Positions 272-40,676 are shown, counted from the first letter of the stretch. The stretch is DNA of 45,106 nucleotides from a virus (IMGVR_UViG_3300028802_000027:1-45106), one strand, 5' to 3'. Translations and numbers: made by a program. The notes: a model not told the origin generated them from the sequence alone.

Positions 272-826
272 ATGCAGAACTTCACGCTACTCGGCACGGT
301 CGACGTGCTGCCGCTCCAGCTCGACCTGCAGCGGCACCCCGAATTGTGGAACCAACACACCGGCCGCACCGCGCACGCGGGTTCGCCACACTCCGAGGTG
401 TCGGACATCTGGCTGCGGTGGAGACCGGAGGAACAGCTGAAGGAGGCGGCCAACTACAACGAACCCTTCGCCGAGTTCTGCTGGTATCCCGCCATGGCCC
501 TGTTGCCGAGCGTGCGCCGGATCCTGATGGACACGATGACCAGGATCGGCGGCACCGCACTGGGCGGCACACTCATCACCCGGATCCCGCCGGGCTGTCA
601 GGTCAAGCCGCACACCGACCAGGACGGCTGGCACGCGAGCTACTACCGGACGAAAGTCTACTGCGTGATTCGCACCAACCCGCGCGCGGTCAACATCACC
701 GGAGGCGAGGCCTACACGCCCAACGTCGGCGATGTGTTCAGCTTCGATAACCTGCTGACGCACGCCGTGATCAACGACGGCGACACAGATCGTGTGACGA
801 TGATGATGGCTCTCAGGGCTGACTGA
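272..826 (+). CDS. 2OG-Fe(II) dioxygenase, aspartyl/asparaginyl beta-hydroxylase-like
   Basis: The 184-residue protein has the metal and co-substrate motif of the double-stranded beta-helix dioxygenases: PHTD (His114, Asp116), a distal His in LLTHAV (His164), and an Arg ten residues later (Arg174) that would bind 2-oxoglutarate. Family knowledge predicts hydroxylation of an amino-acid side chain or another substrate; the target is unknown. The start is the ATG after a CTCGAGGAACCC leader. The stop TGA overlaps the ATG of the cupin gene, so the two are probably translationally coupled. Lying just behind tail genes, it may modify a virion protein, but that is inference. A second copy lies at 44509-45063. 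Confidence 0.8.
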   Translation: MQNFTLLGTVDVLPLQLDLQRHPELWNQHTGRTAHAGSPHSEVSDIWLRWRPEEQLKEAANYNEPFAEFCWYPAMALLPSVRRILMDTMTRIGGTALGGTLITRIPPGCQVKPHTDQDGWHASYYRTKVYCVIRTNPRAVNITGGEAYTPNVGDVFSFDNLLTHAVINDGDTDRVTMMMALRAD

Positions 827-11527: not shown

Positions 11528-11718
11528 GCGTGGCCCTGGTGGCCAGCGTCGGGGGCCTGGAGCTGGTCCCCCGCTCGCCCGCAATCGTCCGGGTGCGCGC
11601 CCCGCCCAGGCCAGTGACCAGGGCAGAGGCGGTCGAGCAGCGACACCTCGCCCTGTCGGCGATCGACAGGGCAAAGCGATCATCCAACTCGGCACCCTCT
11701 TCTTTATCGACTGATTGA
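11494..11718 (+). CDS. Small membrane-anchored hypothetical protein
   Basis: The 74-residue product begins MLVRIVCACLIGVALVASVGG, an N-terminal membrane segment or signal anchor. A proline- and arginine-rich stretch (VRVRAPPRPVTRAEAVEQ) and a Ser-rich tail follow. No recognisable ribosome site precedes it and it overlaps the zinc-ribbon frame. It could be an inner-membrane spanin-like or regulatory peptide. The array on the opposite strand begins 11 nt past its stop. Confidence 0.45.
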   Translation: MLVRIVCACLIGVALVASVGGLELVPRSPAIVRVRAPPRPVTRAEAVEQRHLALSAIDRAKRSSNSAPSSLSTD

Positions 11719-11728
11719 CTCATGTAGT

Positions 11729-12104
11729 CCGGCTCTCTCCGATAGTGCGGTTCGATCGCGATCCACGGTTCACTCGGACCACGCGTCTCGATCGCTTGTT
11801 TCGGTGCTCTTTCCTGCCTCGTCTCGATCCTGATACGCGGTTCCCTCATCCCATTCGTCTCGATCGCATCTTTCGGTGCAACTCGCTTGCTACGTCTCGA
11901 TCCTGATGCACGGCGCCCTACAGTTTGACGTCTCGATCGAGTATCTCGGCGCGCTCACTTCATTCGACTCGCCTACTTCGGTGCGCTCTTTGGGTCGGCT
12001 CATCCGTCGCGGCGCCCTCCTTTTATTCGGCCCGATCAGTGGCAGCGGTGCGCTCTTCGGTTTCGTCTCGCTCCTACCACTCGGCGCCCTCTAGCCGTCT
12101 GGCT
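11729..12104 (-). repeat. GAG-CCG box array, minus strand (A box type GATCGAGACG)
   Basis: Reading leftward from the stop of the HhH gene, about 11 B boxes (GAGnGnnCCG: for example GAGGGCGCCG, GAGCGCACCG, GAGTGAACCG) alternate with about 10 A boxes. Here the A boxes are mostly GATCGAGACG, with GAGCCG, GAGTCG and GATCGGGCCG also present. I count 20 internal spacers, of which 19 are exactly 8 nt. Their sequences (for example TGCATCAG, AAACAAGC, AATGGGAT) share no consensus. The array fills the whole gap between convergent genes and would be the 3' untranslated end of the leftward operon. The minus strand is the one on which it matches the arrays at 19143-23640. Confidence 0.9.
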
Positions 12105-13139
12105 TCAGGCGGCGCGCTTGCCGCGCTTCTTGGGCGGCTCCACTGGCTTGGCACCCTCGCCTTTGGCGGCTGGCCGATCACTTGACGCGGAACTCTCGCG
12201 ATTATCGGCTGGGCTGGTGGGCCGGAACTCGTGTGACGTGGTCTCGTGTGCATCGGTGCTCTGCGCGGAAACGGCTGCGGCCAGGGCCGCCTCGAGGCCG
12301 GGGAACATTTCGCAATTCGGCGGCGCGACAAAGTGGGTGTGATTCGGCAGCGACAAAACAAACGGCTTCGGCGGCGGCTTGCGGAATTCGTGCCAATACC
12401 AAACGCAATGCAGATGCGACAGGAACAGCTTCGTCGCATAACGCTCGGCCCGCAGATGGATGCGCGCAGGCGGCAACTTCCCCTGCTCATAATGCTTGCG
12501 CGCCTCAGTGTCGGCACCAAATTTCTTGGCCTCCAGGCTCGCCTTCGCCTGATCGCTGAACCGCAGCGCGTCGTTGCGCTCGTTCTCGAGTTCCTTCCTG
12601 ACCTTGTAGACCTTGCCGTAGACGTCGTTTTCGTTGCCGCTGACCTTGACGAAACTCTCGCCGATCAGCCAGCACAGGCGTTTGAGGCTACCGTTCCACG
12701 GACGCTTTTCGCCCTTGTTCCATTTGTCCGTCGGATCCAAACCAGCGAACCGCCAGATGTGCCCCACCGTAGGCGCCTGTTTGATGTCGATGTTCGCCAA
12801 CAAACCGGCCGTTATCACCGGGCCAATTCCAACGATGGACTGACACCACACACCGACCGGGTTCGCCCCCGCATAGCCTGCGAGCGCGCGCCGTATTTGG
12901 TTTTCCAACGTCTCGCGCTGCCCCGACAGCCAGCTGACGATGTCATGCGGTTCGGATCCCTGCGCCAGCGTCCGTTCCTGATGCGCGGCGCGGATCCGGT
13001 CTCTCTGTGATGCATAGTAGGCATCCACGAGGTAACGCGCTTCACGATCCGACAAGGTGATCGCTGCGTTTCGGAGATCGCGCGTGAGGCGCTGGATGCT
13101 CTCGAGGTATTCACTCACTGCGGGGGTGTTGCTGCTCAT
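12105..13139 (-). CDS. IS110-transposase-like HhH (Transposase_20) protein without a nuclease domain
   Basis: The 344-residue protein holds a region at about residues 85-160 that matches the C-terminal Transposase_20 domain of IS110/IS116 transposases: CQSIVGIGPVITAGLLANID, WRFAGLDP, then KRPWNGSLKRLCWLIGESF. The catalytic RuvC-like DEDD domain of those transposases is absent; instead there is an N-terminal helical part and a basic, disordered C terminus (ends PKKRGKRAA). Such stand-alone proteins occur in phages; their function is unknown, though the HhH fold binds DNA. The start ATG at 13139 follows GAGAGCACC, identical to an array B box. It is the last gene of the leftward operon and is followed at once by an array. 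Confidence 0.65.
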   Translation of the reverse strand: MSSNTPAVSEYLESIQRLTRDLRNAAITLSDREARYLVDAYYASQRDRIRAAHQERTLAQGSEPHDIVSWLSGQRETLENQIRRALAGYAGANPVGVWCQSIVGIGPVITAGLLANIDIKQAPTVGHIWRFAGLDPTDKWNKGEKRPWNGSLKRLCWLIGESFVKVSGNENDVYGKVYKVRKELENERNDALRFSDQAKASLEAKKFGADTEARKHYEQGKLPPARIHLRAERYATKLFLSHLHCVWYWHEFRKPPPKPFVLSLPNHTHFVAPPNCEMFPGLEAALAAAVSAQSTDAHETTSHEFRPTSPADNRESSASSDRPAAKGEGAKPVEPPKKRGKRAA

Positions 13140-13311
13140 GGTGCTCTCTGTTGAGGTTGGGATTGTAGGCGGCGTAAAATCCACTCAGGAAGCACATGCT
13201 GTCGCGCGTGTCGCGCTCGTCTGCCTCCCGGTAGCGGCGGAACCCCTGGCCAGTGACGTAACCGGCCAGGAAGAAAATCGTCCCGACAAAATAGGTGACA
13301 ACCCACCACAT
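13111..13311 (-). CDS. Small membrane protein
   Basis: The 66-residue product starts MWWVVTYFVGTIFFLAGYVTG, one N-terminal transmembrane helix, followed by a charged cytoplasmic-type tail (RRYREADERDTRDS). It starts in a TGATG overlap and itself overlaps the start of the HhH gene by 29 nt. No family was recognised. A holin-like or membrane-signalling role cannot be excluded, but early-operon position argues against lysis. Confidence 0.6.
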   Translation of the reverse strand: MWWVVTYFVGTIFFLAGYVTGQGFRRYREADERDTRDSMCFLSGFYAAYNPNLNREHHEQQHPRSE

Positions 13312-18902: not shown

Positions 18903-19145
18903 ATGCCGGATGAAGACAATTTTGGGCCCTGCAGATCGTGCCTCCACTGGTCTCCACAGCCCGGCCAAGACGGCCTCGTGGGCGAGACGCGGGGCGTTTG
19001 CAGGACGTGGCGCGCGTGGCGCTGGTGCGGCCAGCTGGCGCGTCACCCGTGGCCCTACACGATGGACTTCATGGGCTGTCCCGAGTGGAACCGACCTGGG
19101 CCCGAGCCCGACCCACAGCCCGGCGAGCGGGCGAGGAGGAGGTAG
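18903..19145 (+). CDS. Small cysteine-motif (zinc-binding) protein, paralogue of 19531-19725
   Basis: The 80-residue product begins MPDEDNFGPCRSCLHWSP and has GVCRTWRAWRW and a later FMGCPEW. The CxxCxxW ... G-x-CR ... C layout is the same as in the neighbour at 19531, so the two are probably paralogous four-cysteine metal-binding proteins of a kind common in phages. Its TAG stop (19143-19145) is part of the first A box of the following array. The 132 nt upstream (18771-18902) hold no gene and no clear promoter. Confidence 0.65.
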   Translation: MPDEDNFGPCRSCLHWSPQPGQDGLVGETRGVCRTWRAWRWCGQLARHPWPYTMDFMGCPEWNRPGPEPDPQPGERARRR

Positions 19146-19530
19146 CCGCCGAGTGGGAGAGAACCGACTTTTTGGAGCGACCAGCCGTCTCTCGAGAGAG
19201 CACCGAACCGATAGATCGTTCCGCGAGCGACCAGCCGCAATTAGGGAGAGCACCTGAATCGGCGAGCGACCAGCCGTTTGGGCGGAGGGAACCGTGCTTA
19301 CAGAGCAACCAGCCGGCGCAGGCGAGGGCCCCGAAGAGCACGAGACCGAGCGACCAGTCGAGACACCGGAGAGCGCCGCGTTCCAAGAGCGACCAGACGT
19401 CAAAGCAGAGTGCACCGTGATACAGGATCGTTCGTGTCCAAGGATGGTATCGTGTCCGTAAAGGAATATTATCGGACGTAACCAGCCGCGAGCCTTGAGG
19501 GCACCGATAAAGAGGAGCAGCCGGTAGACG
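19143..19530 (+). repeat. GAG-CCG box array 2a (A box type GAGCGACCAGCCG)
   Basis: Alternating boxes fill the whole gap between two genes. A boxes here are a longer subtype, GAGCGACCAGCCG (five or six copies with few changes); B boxes include GAGAGAACCG, GAGAGCACCG, GAGGGAACCG, GAGGGCCCCG and GAGTGCACCG. Spacers read, in order, CCGAGTGG, ACTTTTTG, TCTCTCGA, AACCGATA, CAATTAGG, TTTGGGCG and so on, nearly all 8 nt. Around 19435-19480 the pattern decays. The first A box contains the stop codon of the upstream gene, and the last spacer contains the ATG of the next. Confidence 0.9.
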
Positions 19531-19725
19531 ATGAGCGACGACGAGGCCTGCGTCACCTGCCGCTACTGGCGAAACCTCGGCCGCGACAAGGTCGGTGACC
19601 TGGAGGGCTACTGCCGGCGGCGCGCCCCGCAGGCTTGGATGGGCCCCGACAACCGCTCGGAGCGGCCGCAGTGGCCATTGACCGGCGCCGATGACTGGTG
19701 CGGCGAGTGGGAGGCAAGGGGATGA
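19531..19725 (+). CDS. Small four-cysteine protein (CxxCxxW type)
   Basis: The 64-residue product begins MSDDEACVTCRYWRNLGRD, then EGYCRRRAPQAW and GADDWCGEWEARG. The arrangement CxxCxxW ... G-x-C-RR-x-P ... WP-x-T ... WCGE is a recurring phage and bacterial small-protein family, presumed to bind zinc. The ATG lies inside the 8-nt spacer that follows the A box GAGCAGCCG, so the array supplies its leader. The stop overlaps the next start (ATGA). Confidence 0.7.
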   Translation: MSDDEACVTCRYWRNLGRDKVGDLEGYCRRRAPQAWMGPDNRSERPQWPLTGADDWCGEWEARG

Positions 19726-20135
19726 GCGCCGGGCCAGACGTGGCGAAATCCGTGACCAAACGAGTGGCGAAACCCGTGACGAAAGGGGGAGGGGCAAACC
19801 TCCGCCTACGTTTGTCCCCCCGGCCGTGGGGCCTGCTCGAGGCCTTCGTGGCCAGCCGCGTGGGCGAGGGCAGCAGCGGCGGCTATCAATCGAAGCGGCG
19901 CAAGTGGCGGGCTCAATTGAACGCCCGGCTGTCGGGCCTGGACACCTGGGAGCGGCGCGCGGTGCCGCGTGTGATGCCTGGGCTGTGCTACCTCGAGCTG
20001 GACCAGGGGGATGTCGACTGGATCCGTCGGCAGATCCGGAACTGCGGTGGGGGTGGCTGGGAGCGTCAGGTGTGCGACATCTTCGACAGCTCGGCTGAGG
20101 TGTTCTGCAATATCGAGCGGGTGAAGAAGCGATAG
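19722..20135 (+). CDS. Hypothetical basic protein, 137 residues
   Basis: The start is ATG 19722, overlapping the preceding TGA; an earlier in-frame ATG would overlap more. The N terminus has an imperfect repeat (VTKRVAKPVTKGG) and is strongly basic. The rest contains PWGLLEAFVASRVGEGSSGG, RAQLNARLSGLDTWERRAVP and a C-terminal ERVKKR. It might bind nucleic acid. No family was recognised. Its TAG stop lies inside the first A box (TAGCCG) of the next array. Confidence 0.55.
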   Translation: MSAGPDVAKSVTKRVAKPVTKGGGANLRLRLSPRPWGLLEAFVASRVGEGSSGGYQSKRRKWRAQLNARLSGLDTWERRAVPRVMPGLCYLELDQGDVDWIRRQIRNCGGGGWERQVCDIFDSSAEVFCNIERVKKR

Positions 20136-21564
20136 CCGACCCTGACGAGTGCGCCGGTTCGTGGGAGCGTCAGCCGAGACACGAGAGGGCGCCGATTTCG
20201 TTGAGCATCCGAGCCGGCAGGCCCGAGGGGTCCGATGTAGATGAGCAGCCGACGCAGGAGAGGGGGCCGAGATGTGATGAGCGCAGCCTTGGTCGAGGAG
20301 GGCACCGCCGTGACCGAGCAGCCGGCTACCCTGAGGGGACCGAAGGCAGCGATCGAACAGCCGGCCTGAGTGAGGGCGCCGATCCATGTGAGCCGACGAG
20401 GTTGAGTGGACCGCATTGCCGGAGTTAGCCGATCCTCTCGAGGGGTCCGATGCAGTTGAGCAGCCACTCCCGCAGAGGGGGCCGTGGCGGTAGAGCGAGT
20501 AGCCGAAGCTTCGGAGGGGTCCGGAATAGCCGAGCAGCCAGCGAGCGCGAGCTGAGCGAGTCGAGCGAACTGAGTGGACCGAAGGGAGCGATCGAGCCGT
20601 TACGCCGGAGGGCGCCGGTATGTATGAGCGATCGAACCGAGCTAGATGCGAGTGCCGAACTCCGGGAGTGTTCGCTGTCCGTTCCGCTGGCGAATCCGAG
20701 TCCGAGTCAAGGCCGACTTTCGGACTCAGCCGAACCGGCCGCGGAGGGGACCGGGGGGCCAGAGCAGCCGGCTGTTTTGAGGGGTCCGTGACTAAGGAGC
20801 CGGTAGGCGAAAATGGGGAGGGTTCCGGTAGAACCGATCGAGCCAGCCTCGACGAGGGGGCCGTGAGCAATGAGCAGTCGTGTTGGTCGAGGGTGCCGCG
20901 ATCAAAGAACAGCCGACGGAATGGAGTGGACCGACATGGTTGAGCCGTTAGACGGAAGGGGACCGATCTAAGGGAGCAGCCGAACGCTGCGAGGGATCCG
21001 CAAGGGCTGAGCAGGCGAATCTCAAGAGGGGGCCGAGAGTGCGGATCGGAGCCGGCTAAGAGGAGTGGACCGCGACTGCGGAGCTGCCGCAGAGGTCTGA
21101 GCCGATAGACGAAAGGGGACCGTGACCAAGGAGCCGACGCGGGAGAGGGGGCCGACTTGCATGAGCCGAGAACCAAGAGGGGACCGGACTGTGGGAGCCG
21201 CGAGGACGTGAGGGGTCCGAGAGGAACGAGCAGGCGCAGGACCGGAGAGGACCGACACCCGCGATCGAGCCGAATAGCGCGAGGGGTCCGTAGCAGTCGA
21301 GGGCGAGAGGGTTCCGCAACGGAGAACGAGCCGTGGTGATTGAGGGGACCGTGGGAGCCGAGCCGTGTCAGAAGAGGGGTCCGGAAGCACAGAGGCAGGC
21401 GTCGATCGCGAGTGAACCGCATCCCTTGATCGAGCCGATTCAACGGAGGGGTCCGGGTTACGTGAGCAGCCGGCCGCAGCGAGGGGTCCGCAAGAGCAGA
21501 GCAGCCGAGCGTCCGAAGGGGGCCGTCGGAGGCGAGCAGCCGGTGAGGTAGAGGGGTCCGAAAG
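20133..21564 (+). repeat. GAG-CCG box array 2b, the largest (about 38 B boxes)
   Basis: This 1.43-kb stretch has no gene on the + strand. It is built from A boxes (GAGCAGCCG, GAGCCG, GATCGAGCCG, GAGCAGGCG) alternating with B boxes (GAGGGGTCCG most often; also GAGGGGACCG, GAGGGGGCCG, GAGGGCGCCG, GAGTGGACCG, GAGGGATCCG, GAGGGTTCCG). Box-to-box spacers are 8 nt almost throughout, so the A-to-A period is about 35 nt, not a multiple of three. A decayed part lies at about 20640-20735. Some units look duplicated: spacers TGACTAAG and TGACCAAG, and ATAGACGA and TTAGACGG, occur in similar contexts. The array ends at the start codon of the gene at 21565. Confidence 0.92.
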
Positions 21565-21819
21565 ATGGGAGCGCCTATGCGAGCCTCTCAGAGCCAGCTG
21601 GCGGCCCTCATAGCCTGGGCGGATGATTTCTACCCGGACAGGCTCCAGGGGCCTCCTGGGTGGCTCCCAGACGTCTGGCTGGCCGACGATGACGTGGTCG
21701 AGCTGTTCGGGTGGGTGACGCACCGGAGGCAGCACTGTGCGCTGGTGGATAAGCTGGAGTTCCGCGGCGAGGTCGCGAAGCAGGCGATGCGGGCCTGCTG
21801 GCGCCGGATCGGGTGGTGA
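21565..21819 (+). CDS. Hypothetical protein, 84 residues
   Basis: The product has SQSQLAALIAWADDFYPDRL, GWLPDVWLADDDVVELFGW, and a helical Arg-rich end (AMRACWRRIGW). The start ATG at 21565 lies in the spacer after the B box GAGGGGTCCG, whose GAGGGG is a plausible ribosome site 8 nt away; ATG 21577 is an alternative. The stop overlaps the next start as TGATG. No family was recognised. Confidence 0.6.
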   Translation: MGAPMRASQSQLAALIAWADDFYPDRLQGPPGWLPDVWLADDDVVELFGWVTHRRQHCALVDKLEFRGEVAKQAMRACWRRIGW

Positions 21820-22016
21820 TGTTCAGCCGGTTTCTTCAACAGCACGCCTCTGGGCGGACGGACGAGATGCTGGCGACGGCGCTGGAGACGCTCATCCTGG
21901 CGGTGGAGCAGTTTGAGGGTCCGGGGAGGATGCTGGTGACGATCGAGGTCAGGCCGGCGGCCAGGGGTAAGGTGAACATCAGCTGCGATGTGGAGGTTCG
22001 GCCGCCGTGGGCGTAG
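21819..22016 (+). CDS. Hypothetical protein, 65 residues
   Basis: The product begins MFSRFLQQHASGRTDEMLAT, with a central helix and then two strands (GRMLVTIEVRPAARGKVN, CDVEVRPPW). The layout resembles small phage early proteins but no family was recognised. The ATG at 21819 overlaps the preceding stop. Its own TAG lies in an A-like box (TAGTCG) that opens the next array. Confidence 0.55.
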   Translation: MFSRFLQQHASGRTDEMLATALETLILAVEQFEGPGRMLVTIEVRPAARGKVNISCDVEVRPPWA

Positions 22017-22345
22017 TCGATAAGCGCGAGGGGTCCGAAACGGGAGAGTCGAGAGAAGTGAGGGGTCCGCGATAGCAGAGCAGGCGAACTACGTGAGGGC
22101 GCCGTATCGGCTGATCAGGCGAAGGATGAGAGGGGACCGAAACGACAGAACGACCCGTTGAATGAGAGGGGACCGAGCGGGGTGAGGCGAAGCACGGGAG
22201 GGTTCCGTATCAGACGATCGACCCGTAGACCATGAGGGTGCCGTTGATCGCGAGGCCGACCCGTTGCGCCTGAGGGAGCCGAAATGGAAGAGGGGTCCGA
22301 AACCAGCGAGCAGGCGAGCAGAGGCGAGTGCACCGTCATATCGGA
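22014..22345 (+). repeat. GAG-CCG box array 2c
   Basis: About ten B boxes (GAGGGGTCCG, GAGGGCGCCG, GAGGGGACCG, GAGGGTTCCG, GAGGGTGCCG, GAGGGAGCCG, GAGTGCACCG) alternate with A boxes of mixed type (GAGTCG, GAGCAGGCG, GATCAGGCG, GATCGACCCG, GAGGCG). Spacers are 8 nt. One place has two B boxes in a row (GAGGGAGCCG, AAATGGAA, GAGGGGTCCG), showing that strict alternation is not required. It begins at the stop codon of the upstream gene. Confidence 0.9.
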
Positions 22346-22570
22346 TCGATGTCATTTGAAATGGCCTAAATCGGACAGGGGCCGTTTCCGGCCGTGTCAG
22401 AATTAGAACCCATTGATCCTGAAGGATAAACCAAAACCTCGCGGCGATTGGCGGAAATGGCGGCGGAATTACGCGCGGTCTATGAAACCAGATCGAAACG
22501 TAGAACTTCGCCAACCGGAACGAGCGACAGATCCAAATTGAGGGAAGGTGACGGAAGGTGACGGGAAGGT
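22346..22570 (+). other. AT-richer spacer without boxes or genes
   Basis: This stretch breaks the array. It has no convincing gene and is less GC-rich than its surroundings. It contains a small hairpin (ATCCT, GA, AGGAT near 22417) and, at the end, a threefold direct repeat of GGAAGGTGACG (about 22540-22574). It may hold a promoter for the downstream gene, but no clear -35/-10 pair was seen. Confidence 0.5.
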
Positions 22571-22650
22571 GACGGAACAGCCGACGTGAGGGGAGGGGGC
22601 CGAAATGGTCGAGGCAGCCGAAGTAGAAGAGGGAACCGGAGGGACCGAGG
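22571..22650 (+). repeat. GAG-CCG boxes running into a coding region
   Basis: The series is A (GAACAGCCG), spacer, B (GAGGGGGCCG), spacer AAATGGTC containing the ATG at 22605, A (GAGGCAGCCG), spacer AAGTAGAA, B (GAGGGAACCG), spacer GAGGGACC. The last two boxes are translated as the N terminus of the gene 22605-23009. The 8-nt spacing is kept across the start codon. Confidence 0.85.
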
Positions 22651-23009
22651 TCTGGAGCTACAGCCAGGGGACGGGGGAGCTGACGGCGCCGGACGGGGTG
22701 ATGCTGGCGTGCGGGTATTCGGGCTGTGGGGTGTGCACGAACCAGCCGCAGATGCAGTGGGCGGAGGACCTGGGGCCGATCCCGCGGGGGAGCTATGCGA
22801 TTGGCGTGCCCAGGGACGACGAGACGATGGGCCCGTATTGCCTACCGCTGGAGCCCGATCCAGAAAATGAGATGCACGGGCGCTTCGGGTTCTACATGCA
22901 CGGGGACAACGAGACGAGCACGGCGAGCACGGGGTGCATCATCATGCCGAGGGCGATCCGGGAGGAGGTGGCGCGGAGCACGTGCACGACGCTGCGGGTG
23001 GTGGTGTAG
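22605..23009 (+). CDS. Tlde1/DUF2778-type L,D-transpeptidase-fold enzyme, endolysin candidate
   Basis: The 134-residue protein matches the Tlde1/DUF2778 family: WSYSQGTGELTAPDG, CGYSGCG, GPIPRGSYAIG, and the active-site segment GFYMHGDNETSTASTGCIIM with the His and the catalytic Cys of the L,D-transpeptidase fold. Such enzymes cut or exchange peptidoglycan stem peptides in the periplasm. As a single-domain protein it is the best endolysin candidate here, although no signal sequence is seen. Its first about 15 residues (MVEAAEVEEGTGGTE) are encoded by array boxes. GAGGGGG upstream, a B box, can serve as ribosome site. Confidence 0.72.
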   Translation: MVEAAEVEEGTGGTEVWSYSQGTGELTAPDGVMLACGYSGCGVCTNQPQMQWAEDLGPIPRGSYAIGVPRDDETMGPYCLPLEPDPENEMHGRFGFYMHGDNETSTASTGCIIMPRAIREEVARSTCTTLRVVV

Positions 23010-23240
23010 GCTCTGGCTCGACGGATCTCTCCCATCTTTCGGCTCTGGCGGCGGGGTTCTCTCTCACAGATCGGCTCGGTCTCGGACATCGCGGCGCTCT
23101 CCCGAAACACGGATTGCCGCTTGCATGAGCTCGCGGCCGTCGGCTCTCTCGCGCAGAATGGCTCGCCCTATTCGGCTCCCTCCGAAGCTTCGGCTCGAGG
23201 TCGACGGTCCCCTCCCACTTCTCGGCTGTTCCACAGCTCG
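23007..23240 (-). repeat. GAG-CCG box array 3a, minus strand
   Basis: Reading leftward, B boxes (GAGGGGACCG, GAGGGAGCCG, GAGAGAGCCG, GAGAGCGCCG, GAGAGAACC, GAGAGATCCG) alternate with A boxes (mostly GAGCCG), with 8-nt spacers such as TCGACCTC, AAGCTTCG, AATAGGGC, ACGGCCGC, CGATGTCC and ATCTGTGA. The first boxes lie within the 3' coding end of the gene 23168-23509 and the array stops at the end of the convergent gene 22605-23009. Orientation has flipped relative to 19143-22650, following the strand of the neighbouring gene. Confidence 0.88.
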
Positions 23241-23509
23241 AACTGGCCCTGGCGGGCGGCCTGAGCCTGTATGACGCGGATTGCGGCCTCGAACATGGGC
23301 TGCCAGGACGGCGGGTAGAGGGCGAAGCAGTGGCTGCCGGCGCCGGCTTTCTTGGTGCGCAGGTCTTTGACGGGCGGCCGCTTCATGATTCTGACCCAGG
23401 CGGCTGCCATTTGTTTGCCGACCTCCCAGGCCTGTTCGTTGGACAGCTCGACCTGGAGGTCGCGTGAGACGCTGTGGATGCTGATCCATTCCCGGTTCGA
23501 TGTGCTCAT
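23168..23509 (-). CDS. Hypothetical protein whose C terminus is encoded by array boxes
   Basis: This 113-residue leftward gene begins MSTSNREWISIHSVSRDLQV and contains VGKQMAAAWVRIMKRPPVKD and SHCFALYPPSWQPMFEAAIR. The well-formed helices suggest a real protein, of unknown family. From about residue 92 (NSREVGGDRRPRAEASEGAE) the coding sequence is array: A, B, A and B boxes at 8-nt spacing, with the TAG stop in the following spacer. The original stop was probably lost or overrun by the array. It is flanked on both sides by arrays on its own strand. Confidence 0.6.
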   Translation of the reverse strand: MSTSNREWISIHSVSRDLQVELSNEQAWEVGKQMAAAWVRIMKRPPVKDLRTKKAGAGSHCFALYPPSWQPMFEAAIRVIQAQAARQGQFELWNSREVGGDRRPRAEASEGAE

Positions 23510-23640
23510 CCTGTCTCACGCTCCGGCGCTTCGGTGCTCTCCCCGGCAGGCGGCTTCCCAGAGGCGGCTCTTGCATTCCGGATCTCTCGCATAAGGCGGC
23601 TCGCGGGCTTAGGCACCCTCCAACCCCACGGCTGGGCCGT
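23510..23640 (-). repeat. GAG-CCG box array 3b, minus strand
   Basis: Three B boxes (GAGGGTGCC, GAGAGATCCG, GAGAGCACCG) and A boxes (CAGCCG, GAGCCG, AAGCCG) lead up to the start of the gene 23168-23509, with 8-nt spacers such as TGGGGTTG, CCTTATGC, GAATGCAA and AAGCGCCG. It forms the 5' untranslated region of that gene. From 23641 to 23769 there are no boxes; ACGACTCAGTCGT near 23747 is a 13-nt dyad that may mark the control region of the late genes. Confidence 0.85.
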
Positions 23641-23715: not shown

Positions 23716-23769
23716 TCGGTCGGTTCAGGCCTAATCGGGCATCCCAACGACTCAGTCGTAGGGGTGGCA

Positions 23770-24267
23770 ATGCTTGACTCGATGCAAGCCTGCGTTGCAG
23801 CGTCTCAGGCAACGGACGCGGAGCCACGGATCCGCGCGCCGTGCGGCAGCCGTTGGTGTGTCATTCAGACGCACCCGCAGGCTGAGCGGTGGGCCAGGGC
23901 GAACCTCATTGATCAGGGTTATGTGGTCTATCTGCCGCTCGAGGCGTTGCTGCGGCCTGACCGGGTCTTGCCGACCATGTTTCTCGAGGTCGTGAGGCCG
24001 TTATTTCCCCGTTACATCTTCGTCAATCTCTCACCAACAGATCCGTGGGGACCGGTGACGCACACCAGGGGTGTGGCACATCTGCTCATGACTGGGCAGG
24101 GGCTGCCGGCGCGGGTGCCGCTCGGTGAGATCGAGGCGCTGATAGCCAGGACGTCGGAGCGCGGTGTGGTGGACGACCAGGGGCCGCCTGAGAGCATCAG
24201 GGCGATCAGGCGGAGGTTCGAGCGGGGGCCGTTGGGTGAGTTGCTGTCGCGGTGGAGGCAGGCATGA
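23770..24267 (+). CDS. NusG/RfaH-like transcription elongation factor, N-terminal domain only
   Basis: The 165-residue protein carries the NGN domain: RWCVIQTHPQAERWARANLI, GYVVYLPLEA, then RPLFPRYIFVNLSP, and THTRGVAHLLMTGQGLPARV. NGN domains bind the RNA-polymerase clamp and promote processivity. After about residue 135 only a short helical tail (RRFERGPLGELLSRWRQA) follows, so the KOW domain is missing or vestigial. It is the first gene of the rightward late block, just before the terminase genes, so an antiterminator of late transcription is a good inference. ATG 23770 has AGGGG 7 nt upstream; GTG 23764 is less likely. Confidence 0.75.
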   Translation: MLDSMQACVAASQATDAEPRIRAPCGSRWCVIQTHPQAERWARANLIDQGYVVYLPLEALLRPDRVLPTMFLEVVRPLFPRYIFVNLSPTDPWGPVTHTRGVAHLLMTGQGLPARVPLGEIEALIARTSERGVVDDQGPPESIRAIRRRFERGPLGELLSRWRQA

Positions 24268-38376: not shown

Positions 38377-39585
38377 ATGGACAGCGGACCGCTCATCTTC
38401 TCGCCCCTGGGTCCGACCTACTGGAACCCGCTCGCGAACATCATCACACAGCCCGCCACGGGGCACTTCTACGCGGCGAACGGCGCGGTGATAAACCGCA
38501 TCAACGATCGGTTGCTGGTGGGCGCCTCCGCCACCGACCAGGACGGCGAGACCGGCAACCTGCACCGCTCCTGGCTCGGCCAGACAGCGGGCGGCGTCAA
38601 CCGCTACATGGACACCACTTCGGTGTTCGAGGTGCTCACCGTCCTGGGCAGCAACGTGGCGGCGGCGTTCGGTGCGCGCAGTCAGGACTATTCCAGCTCG
38701 GACGGTGTGTTCGCCATCACGGCGCACGCCAGCAATGACCGCGTCGGCGGCGAGCCCAACGCGTGGGGCATCTACAGCAGCGCTGTGCGGGTGTCGTCCG
38801 ACGCCAAATACACCGCCGGCTATGAGGTCGACGTCACCACCCTGCAGCCGAAGGTGAGGGCCAGCGCCTACAACGTCGTGCCCTACGGCGTGACCATCGG
38901 CTACTCGGTTGCGGCCGGCGGAGAGTCTGCGCTGCGCAGTGCCGGCGCCGACAGCGGGCTCACCGTATATCCAAGCAGCGTCGGCATCGCGTTCTTCACC
39001 GCCGGCACGGGCGTCAATCAGGCGGACCCGGTCGCCGGCACGGGTGCCGTTTGGGACAAAGGCATTGTTTTCCAGTCCAACTCCATTATCGGCACCGACG
39101 GCTCTCTCGGAGCCTGGGGCATCGCGATCGAGATGGCGAAGGGCCACAGCGTTGTGTGGGCCAACGACGTGGGCGACACCGACATCGGCGGGATGATCCG
39201 CAGCGACAACTCCTCCGGACAGTCCGACTATCAGCAGCGCGTCGTGTTCGGCGCCACACGGTTGCAGATCAAGGGGGTCGACACCGACCTCGTCACCGAG
39301 AAGATAGTGTTCGAGAACGCGGTGAAGACGATCGGTGGTGGCGCGATCACCAGCCACATCGTCTCGACGCCTGGGAGTGCCTCCAACCCGCCGGCCTTCT
39401 TCGCCGACGGTGCGGCCACCAACATCGACATTCAGCTGGCTGTCAAAGGCACCGGCACGGTGTGGCTCGGCACGGGCGTGGCGACGCCGACAACCCCCGC
39501 GTCGTTCGTTGCCAACAAGGCACTGAGGGTCAAAGACGGCACTGGGGCGACCTACTACATCCCCGTGATGGCGGCGCTCTGGTAA
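38377..39585 (+). CDS. Beta-rich fibre-like structural protein
   Basis: This 402-residue protein of short strands rich in Ser, Thr and Gly includes [40 protein letters not shown], and a C terminus [15 protein letters not shown]. That ending (a domain closing on ...YYIPVMAA(L)W) is common in phage fibre and hyaluronidase-like structural proteins. It is probably a receptor-binding or appendage protein. GAGGG precedes the start; the stop overlaps the next ATG. Confidence 0.6.
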
Positions 39586-40676
39586 TGGCAAACTTCCAAA
39601 TTTCGGTTCCGTTCCACGGCATCAGTCCCAACTGGATCCACCGCAGAGACTTCGTCAGCTCGAACGGCGACTCTCTGTCCCTGCGCATGACATTGAAGGA
39701 GTCTGACGACCCCGACGCGGCGGCCGCCAACCTGACCGGGCTCACCGTCCCTGGCTTCCGGCTCACCGTGTGGCAGGACAGCTCGGGCGGTGCGTGGGAC
39801 TACGGCGGCGTGCAGAGCGGCCCCGGCACCACCCTGGCGCAGCTCGAGGGCATCGTCTCCAGCCTCTATCCCGGCACGGTCGACTTCGTCCTCGGGCTGG
39901 GCGGCATGGCCTCCTGGCCGAACCGGTGCGGGTTCGCCATCGACATCGTGCACAACGACAGCCTGCAGGACCGGCTCGCCGAGGGGATCCTGAGGCTGCG
40001 TGGCATCCCTGGCGCAATGGCCACAGGCATCGGTGCCCAGGCGCCACAGATCGTCATGGGCCCACCCGGCCCACCCGGACCGGCTGGCCCAGAGGGCGAC
40101 GTCGGCCCGGCCGGCGTGACAGGCTCCACGGGGCCCGCAGGCGCCACCGGATCCACAGGCGACCCCGGCCCAGTCGGCCCCACCGGCACAACCGGCCCAA
40201 CCGGCGCAACCGGTTCCACCGGTCCTGCAGGCCCCACCGGCAGCACGGGTGCCCCAGGCGCTACCGGTGCCACCGGTCCCACGGGCCCCACCGGCCCGGC
40301 CGGCACTTACACCGCGGGCGCCGGCATCGGCATCTCGGGCGGCACGATCTCCGCCGACGGGCAAATCTCGATCACCCCGACCACGGTCGGCACGATCACC
40401 CCGACCAACGCGACGCAGAGCTGTGTGGTCAACGTCGGCTCCAGCAACTGCGTGCTGACGGTGCAGCCGGGCTACGTGGGCCAGCACTTGCGGCTCGAGA
40501 TCAAACAGCCTGCCACGCCGAGGACTGTCTCCTTCGACAGCACGGTCATCTACGGCACCGACATCACGAGCTACACCGCCAGCGCGGTCGCCAACGCCCG
40601 CGACATGGTCATGCTGTTCTGCCCCGCCGGCACGACCTGGACGGTCGCGGCGATCGTCCACGGGTTCGCAGTGTGA
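39585..40676 (+). CDS. Collagen-like tail fibre protein
   Basis: The 363-residue protein has three parts: an N-terminal beta domain ([30 protein letters not shown]), a collagen-like Gly-X-Y block at about residues 158-243 ([20 protein letters not shown] and many GPT/GAT/GST triplets), and a C-terminal beta domain ([19 protein letters not shown]). Collagen blocks in phage fibres form rigid trimeric stems. The start at 39585 overlaps the preceding TAA; upstream in-frame codons are shadows of the preceding gene. Confidence 0.8.

What the first reader, a model, noticed from the sequence alone, without database searches (positions are those of the whole stretch)
19143..22650. Undescribed two-box repeat array with fixed 8-nt variable spacers
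Seen directly: about 2.2 kb of intergenic DNA is made of two alternating degenerate boxes, A (GAGCAGCCG / GAGCCG / GATCGAGCCG) and B (GAGnGnnCCG). Each begins GAG and ends CCG, and almost every pair is separated by exactly 8 nt. Spacer sequence is free but spacer length is fixed; box sequence is loosely conserved, with the middle two bases of B (GGnnCC) taking many combinations. The A-to-A period is about 35 nt, so this is not a translated repeat. With the minus-strand arrays there are roughly 80 B boxes. It does not fit CRISPR, iterons, stoperators, minisatellites or attC sites known to me. Fixed spacing with free sequence implies that something (a protein, or an RNA fold) measures distance.
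Basis: seen in the sequence. Interest (0 to 1): 0.95.

Follow-up and report, generated by a model that had tools for sequence, protein, structure and literature searches.

The report
Phage guide-RNA array (TIGR-Tas system)
The repeat array is real: it is a long store of paired short guides belonging to a TIGR-Tas system, a kind of RNA-guided DNA-targeting machinery described in 2025, carried here by an uncultured tailed phage that also encodes the matching guide-binding protein.

Summary
In 19143-22650, CCG-N8-GAG occurs 74 times, against 2-8 at other spacings and 6.2 (max 15) in shuffles. It is not undescribed: it is a dual-repeat TIGR array (Faure et al. 2025). Box A is the edge repeat, box B the loop repeat, and the 8-mers are spacers A and B. 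The phage encodes the cognate protein at 12105-13184(-), with more units beside it: NCBIfam TIGR_Tas_endo, 202 bits (cutoff 100); best PDB matches by sequence and fold are TasR and TasH. No nuclease domain was found, so it is TasA-like.

Ninety-seven IMG/VR stretches carry such arrays; at least 81 have the gene on the stretch or contig, and arrays beside it are co-oriented in 67 of 67. All 9 loci found by the protein alone carry arrays. Fourteen contigs with a related portal lack both. The canonical module in relatives is 36 nt, the length of a tigRNA. Salicola phage CGphi29, source of the characterised SpTIGR, has nearly the same repeats and 8-nt spacers.

Less ordinary: about 53 units, edge repeats of 6-14 nt, one edge with a strong hairpin, arrays up to 10 kb from tasA, and block-wise spacer replacement between 93-98% identical relatives. 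No natural target was found.

The parts
12105..13184 (-). tasA-like gene: solo Nop/IS110-RNA-binding-domain protein, 359 aa as an ORF (an internal ATG at codon 16 may be the real start); the last ~45 residues are disordered and read through array units
   Evidence: NCBIfam NF052498 TIGR_Tas_endo 202 bits, cutoff 100; profile hits to PDB 9mty TasR (1e-22) and TasH (5e-12); AlphaFold2 model pLDDT 82 with TasH/TasR as the ten best Foldseek matches; family conserved beside arrays
11660..12290 (-). TIGR array beside tasA: loops such as GAGGGCGCCG and GAGCGCACCG, edges such as GATCGAGACG and GAGTCG, 8-nt spacers; overlaps the 3' end of the tasA ORF
   Evidence: 9 CCG-N8-GAG against 1.0 in shuffles; loops at 12197 and 12158 inside the ORF
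19157..19530 (+). TIGR array, first block of the main array; long edges such as GAGCGACCAGCCG
20147..21572 (+). TIGR array, largest block: loops GAGGGGTCCG, GAGGGGGCCG, GAGGGGACCG and others; edges GAGCAGCCG, GAGCCG, GATCGAGCCG
20698..20732 (+). edge repeat with a long hairpin, GAGTCCGAGTC...GACTTTCGGACTC-AGCCG
   Evidence: fold -16.3 kcal/mol, z -3.2 against shuffles
22028..22345 (+). TIGR array, third block
22575..22645 (+). TIGR array, last two loop repeats; the second overlaps the start of ORF 22605-23009
23010..23620 (-). TIGR array on the minus strand, two blocks either side of minus-strand ORF 23168-23509
   Evidence: 13 CCG-N8-GAG against 1.1 in shuffles
21565..21819 (+). small ORF (84 aa) inside the main array, no Pfam match
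19691..20135 (+). small ORF(s) between array blocks (19691-20098 or 19698-20135), no Pfam match

Best explanation
A TIGR-TasA system in an uncultured tailed phage. The array is transcribed in the direction of its genes and cut inside the edge repeats (box A) into roughly 36-nt tigRNAs: half edge, spacer A (8 nt), loop repeat (box B, 10 nt), spacer B (8 nt), half edge. A dimer of the Nop-domain protein TasA grips the GAG/CCR motifs of the edge with one subunit and those of the loop with the other. This fixes the distance between boxes and leaves each 8-mer free to pair. The two spacers pair with opposite strands of a 16-18 bp DNA site (one strand reads spacer A, 0-2 nt, then the reverse complement of spacer B). 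With no nuclease, the complex most likely binds and bends the site and so blocks replication or transcription of rival mobile DNA. Shown here: architecture, gene, co-occurrence, joint absence, conservation of boxes but not spacers, spacer turnover. Inferred from published TasA/TasR/TasH experiments: transcription, processing, dual-strand guiding. Speculative: rival mobile DNA as the target. The confidence given is for the TIGR-Tas assignment; for the rival-DNA role alone it would be about 0.45.
For: Array statistics. Tas gene by curated model above cutoff, by profile against PDB and by predicted fold. Same gene family in at least 81 of 97 array stretches (67 on the held stretch; 14 more on the whole contig), arrays co-oriented 67 of 67. 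9 of 9 loci found by protein alone have arrays. 14 contigs with a related portal lack both. Module of 36 nt in relatives, 965 of about 1,100 steps. SpTIGR of Salicola phage CGphi29: AAGCGAGCCA / AAGACAACCA with 8-nt spacers, near-identical to GAGCGAGCCR / GAGAGAACCR. Published mechanism: PMC12045711. Conserved box positions differ 0-12% between relatives, spacers mostly 42-59%.
Against: No expression data. No target found: 3 exact matches among 1,325 dual spacers against 2.8 by re-pairing, no self-targets, no excess in sister phages (5 against 2.65). In the window, edges vary from 6 to 14 nt and some (GAGCCG) lack the internal cutting site, so part of the array may not be processed normally. 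No T-run terminator after the arrays. The main array lies 6-10 kb from tasA.
Confidence: 0.95

Rival explanations
1. DNA-level array: a phage protein binds CCG-N8-GAG as double-stranded DNA, as in an iteron, centromere or operator array.
For: Direct repeats with fixed spacing; the centres of CCG and GAG lie 11 bp apart, about one helical turn (sequence).
Against: The associated protein belongs to a family shown to bind 36-nt RNAs from such arrays (PMC12045711). Arrays follow gene orientation 67 of 67 times. Box A tolerates extra sequence and occasional hairpins, which would break DNA phasing. Whole spacers are replaced between relatives.
Confidence: 0.03
2. The arrays guide TasA to the phage's own DNA (regulation, replication, packaging or integration) rather than to other mobile elements.
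For: TasA has no nuclease, and a bend in DNA could serve regulation or recombination (suggested in PMC12045711).
Against: Best self-matches under the published rule are no better than with re-paired spacers. Spacers change in blocks while genes stay 93-98% identical, which does not suit fixed self-targets.
Confidence: 0.12
3. The main array of this phage is a decaying TIGR array: edges have lost length and motifs, and only the array beside tasA is still used.
For: Edges of 6, 9, 12, 13 and 14 nt against a constant 10 in most relatives; main array far from tasA; small genes inside it.
Against: Loop repeats and the 8-nt spacing remain precise over 53 units, and L017 shows a similar large array with irregular edges downstream of a tasA homologue.
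Confidence: 0.12

Closest known systems
SpTIGR-TasH of Salicola phage CGphi29 (HQ634153), Faure et al. 2025, PMC12045711
   Same: Edge (A/G)AGCGAGCC(A/G), loop (A/G)AG-A/G/T-..CC(A/G), 8-nt spacers, array beside a Nop-domain gene in a phage.
   Different: Protein here has no HNH nuclease (TasA-like); about 53 units rather than a dozen; loops GAGGGGTCCG and edges GAGCAGCCG or GAGCCG in the main window array.
TIGR-TasA with dual-repeat array (e.g. Flavonifractor plautii FpTIGR), PMC12045711
   Same: Solo Nop domain plus alternating edge and loop repeats.
   Different: 8-nt rather than 9-nt spacers; far more units (published usual range 5-15); several blocks, some 6-10 kb from tasA.
TIGR stem-loop arrays (Peromyscus gut TasA), PMC12045711
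   Same: One window edge and several L017 edges carry palindromes between the box D and box C motifs.
   Different: Most edges have no hairpin; true loop repeats are present.
IS110 family RNA-guided transposases (IS621)
   Same: Homologous RNA-binding/Nop domain (Pfam Transposase_20; PDB 8wt6).
   Different: No RuvC-like DEDD domain in the 359-aa ORF; IS110 model far below its cutoff (24 against 140 bits); an array, not one bridge RNA.
CRISPR arrays
   Same: Repeats separated by variable spacers that are gained and lost.
   Different: Two alternating 6-14 nt repeats, 8-nt spacers, no Cas family among the proteins scanned.
Box C/D snoRNAs
   Same: Boxes at fixed distance around guides, Nop-domain dimer as the ruler (relation described in PMC12045711).
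   Different: Targets DNA, tandem array, no L7/k-turn component known.

Membership tests
TIGR-Tas (dual-repeat) | Two distinct alternating repeats of 8-12 nt | tested here: met
   Loop 10 nt, 53 copies; edges mostly 6-14 nt in the window, 10 nt in most relatives
TIGR-Tas (dual-repeat) | Fixed-length variable spacers, about 9 nt (8 in SpTIGR) | tested here: met
   8 nt: 74 against 6.2 in shuffles; 101 of 106 window spacers distinct
TIGR-Tas (dual-repeat) | Unit that gives a 36-nt tigRNA | tested here: met
   Relatives: 965 of about 1,100 steps are 36 nt; in the window the step is 32-39 nt because edges vary
TIGR-Tas (dual-repeat) | Adjacent gene for a Tas protein with a Nop domain | tested here: met
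   12105-13184(-) beside the 11660-12290 array:
[quoted passage not shown]
   Both repeats begin GAG and end CCR; G3-C8 pairing is inferred, not tested
TIGR-Tas (dual-repeat) | Array ends with a truncated edge and a rho-independent terminator | tested here: inconclusive
   No T-run terminator beside the arrays; the scan may not suit a GC-rich phage
TIGR-Tas (dual-repeat) | Array RNA processed to tigRNAs and bound by Tas | not testable with these tools
   Needs RNA-seq or pull-down
TIGR-Tas (dual-repeat) | Spacers A and B pair with opposite strands of one DNA site | tested here: inconclusive
   No targets above re-paired controls; the true target sequences may not be held
TasA subtype | Nop domain without nuclease domain | tested here: met
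   Pfam, PHROGs and NCBIfam show no HNH or RuvC; model starts with disordered residues and goes straight into the helical domain
IS110 transposase | N-terminal DEDD RuvC-like domain and IS110 model above cutoff | tested here: not met
   Absent; IS110 model 24 bits, cutoff 140
CRISPR-Cas | One 25-36 nt repeat, similar-sized spacers, Cas proteins | tested here: not met
   Two short alternating repeats, 8-nt spacers; no Cas family among the proteins scanned

The most novel reading that the evidence does not exclude
TIGR arrays of TasA phages are actively renewed guide stores: blocks of spacers are swapped or newly acquired, with breakpoints inside repeats, far faster than the phage genes diverge, so the phage updates its guides against changing rivals without any Cas1-like adaptation gene.
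Probability: 0.25. Interest if true: 0.85.

Novelty: new member of a known kind. Interest (0 to 1): 0.42.

Why it matters
Comparing close relatives gives a first look at a question the discovery paper left open, how TIGR arrays change: boxes are conserved, shared spacers are nearly identical, and other spacers are replaced in blocks. Phages with related portal proteins, with and without the system, make natural comparison pairs for finding targets.

Tried and rejected
(1) Spacers pairing with each other: no clear excess of complementarity; one of eight tests reached p 0.02, in 11 pairs. (2) Hairpins as a general property of box A: 37 long edges have mean z -0.2 and only 11% reach p 0.05; real only for some L017 edges and one window edge. 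(3) DNA-level iteron or centromere array: set aside after the protein match. (4) Translated repeat: the window period is not a multiple of 3, and spacers of 36-nt relatives carry stops. (5) The exact-pattern scan of bacterial genomes returned mostly isolated or coding-like matches and gave no host. (6) Targets by the published rule: none above re-paired controls; a first apparent excess among portal relatives came down to four independent places and was not significant with more sequence. (7) blastn of array DNA against isolated phages found nothing; degenerate repeats defeat blastn. (8) Rfam has no match, PADLOC only a weak unrelated one.

Full report
Observation. The window is an IMG/VR virus record. 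Region 19143-22650 is built as described: box B = GAGnGnnCCG (53 copies), box A = a variable GAG...CCG element, and 8 free nucleotides between boxes. CCG-N8-GAG occurs 74 times against 6.2 in dinucleotide shuffles and 2-8 for other spacings; 49 of 53 B boxes meet the next box at exactly 8 nt. Two minus-strand arrays lie at 11690-12270 and 23010-23620. The array is interrupted by small ORFs and follows the direction of its neighbouring genes.

Same thing elsewhere. Of the candidates, 97 stretches carry at least 12 CC[GA]-N8-GAG within 1 kb (a few pairs of stretches share a contig or are near-identical). In most of them box A is GAGCGAGCCR and box B GAG[ATG]GNNCCR, with a module of 36 nt (965 of about 1,100 edge-to-edge steps).

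The partner gene. Clustering all ORFs of these stretches gave one widely shared real protein family; the other two large clusters are translated array. The window member is the minus-strand ORF 12105-13184; phmmer finds it in 67 of 97 stretches, and a search of whole contigs adds 14 of 24 tested, three of them partial at contig ends. Arrays beside the gene run in its direction in 67 of 67 loci. Going the other way, 9 of 9 loci fetched by the protein alone have arrays, four of them near-identical. Fourteen contigs with a portal protein related to the window's (mostly 57-66% identity), including four of 41-43 kb, lack both gene and array, so the system looks like an accessory module. Contigs may be fragments, so single absences prove little; the joint absence is the point.

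Identity of the protein. It matches Pfam Transposase_20 and phrog_4285 'transposase', but the informative hits are NCBIfam NF052498 TIGR_Tas_endo at 202 bits (cutoff 100) and, by profile, PDB 9mty (TasR) and the TasH entries ahead of IS621. The AlphaFold2 model (mean pLDDT 82) has TasH and TasR as its ten best Foldseek matches, then IS621 and ISCro4. No HNH or RuvC domain was found, so it is TasA-like; the NCBIfam word 'endonuclease' should not be taken over.

What is known. Faure et al. [quoted passage not shown] The module here, AGCCR-N8-GAGNGNNCCR-N8-GAGCG, is 36 nt and puts the variable-length point of box A where edge repeats are cut. Salicola phage CGphi29, the source of SpTIGR, turned up independently as a protein match, and its array reads AAGCGAGCCA-N8-AAGACAACCA-N8.

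Selection and turnover. Between related loci the conserved box positions differ by 0-12% and spacers mostly by 42-59% (30% in L111/L118), while other aligned DNA differs by 2-21%; L008 and L012 have identical arrays. In L049 and L119 (97-98% identical outside the array) the first seven spacers and the last three are shared apart from single-base differences, while the middle 20-odd spacers of L049 are replaced by a few unrelated ones in L119; both breakpoints fall in loop repeats. L111/L118, L041/L121 and L132/L136 also share only some spacers, while pairs above about 98% identity share nearly all. This is block replacement, not point mutation. Whether it reflects acquisition or recombination between arrays cannot be told; mis-assembly of repeats is a residual worry.

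Targets. Using the published rule, 1,325 distinct dual spacers gave 3 exact matches in related loci against 2.8 for re-paired spacers. Window spacers show no self-targets and no significant excess in sister phages (5 against 2.65). With 16 informative bases, a search of all IMG/VR would be swamped by chance matches.

Differences from published systems, stated with care. About 53 dual-spacer units against the usual 5-15; edges from 6 to 14 nt, some lacking the internal cutting site; one strong hairpin-bearing edge (20698-20732, z -3.2) and several in L017, although hairpins are not general; the largest array 6-10 kb from tasA and interleaved with small genes; and an array reading into the 3' end of the tasA ORF.

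Verdict. It is a new, large member of a known kind. The spacer turnover is the part that could matter beyond cataloguing.

Noticed in passing
L049 11346-11921 and the L119 array (minus strand); also L111/L118, L041/L121, L132/L136: Spacers of TIGR arrays are replaced in blocks between phages whose other DNA is 93-98% identical; shared spacers at both array ends, new ones in the middle.
   Followed up: partly
window 23764-24267 (+): Phage-encoded NusG/RfaH-like protein (Pfam NusG 5e-13; RfaH model below cutoff) close to the arrays; relatives in three other array loci, L071, L043, L122. Could help transcription through long untranslated arrays.
   Followed up: partly
window 12108-12290 (-): The C-terminal tail of the tasA ORF (pLDDT below 50) is read through TIGR units (loops at 12197 and 12158), so array and coding sequence overlap.
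   Followed up: partly
L262 6620-6950 (Microcystis phage Mvi-JY20, PP438412): Array-like repeats, ATGCGAGCC alternating with ACGAAACCC and followed by a terminator-like hairpin, beside an unannotated relative of the Tas gene.
   Followed up: no
L017 6500-7700: Several edge repeats carry perfect hairpins (GAGGCCGC-GAA-GCGGCCTC and similar), a possible intermediate between dual-repeat and stem-loop TIGR arrays.
   Followed up: partly
window 22605-23009 (+), 272-826 (+), 39051-40676 (+): ORFs with a Tlde1 domain, an Asp/Arg beta-hydroxylase domain and a collagen-like repeat.
   Followed up: no
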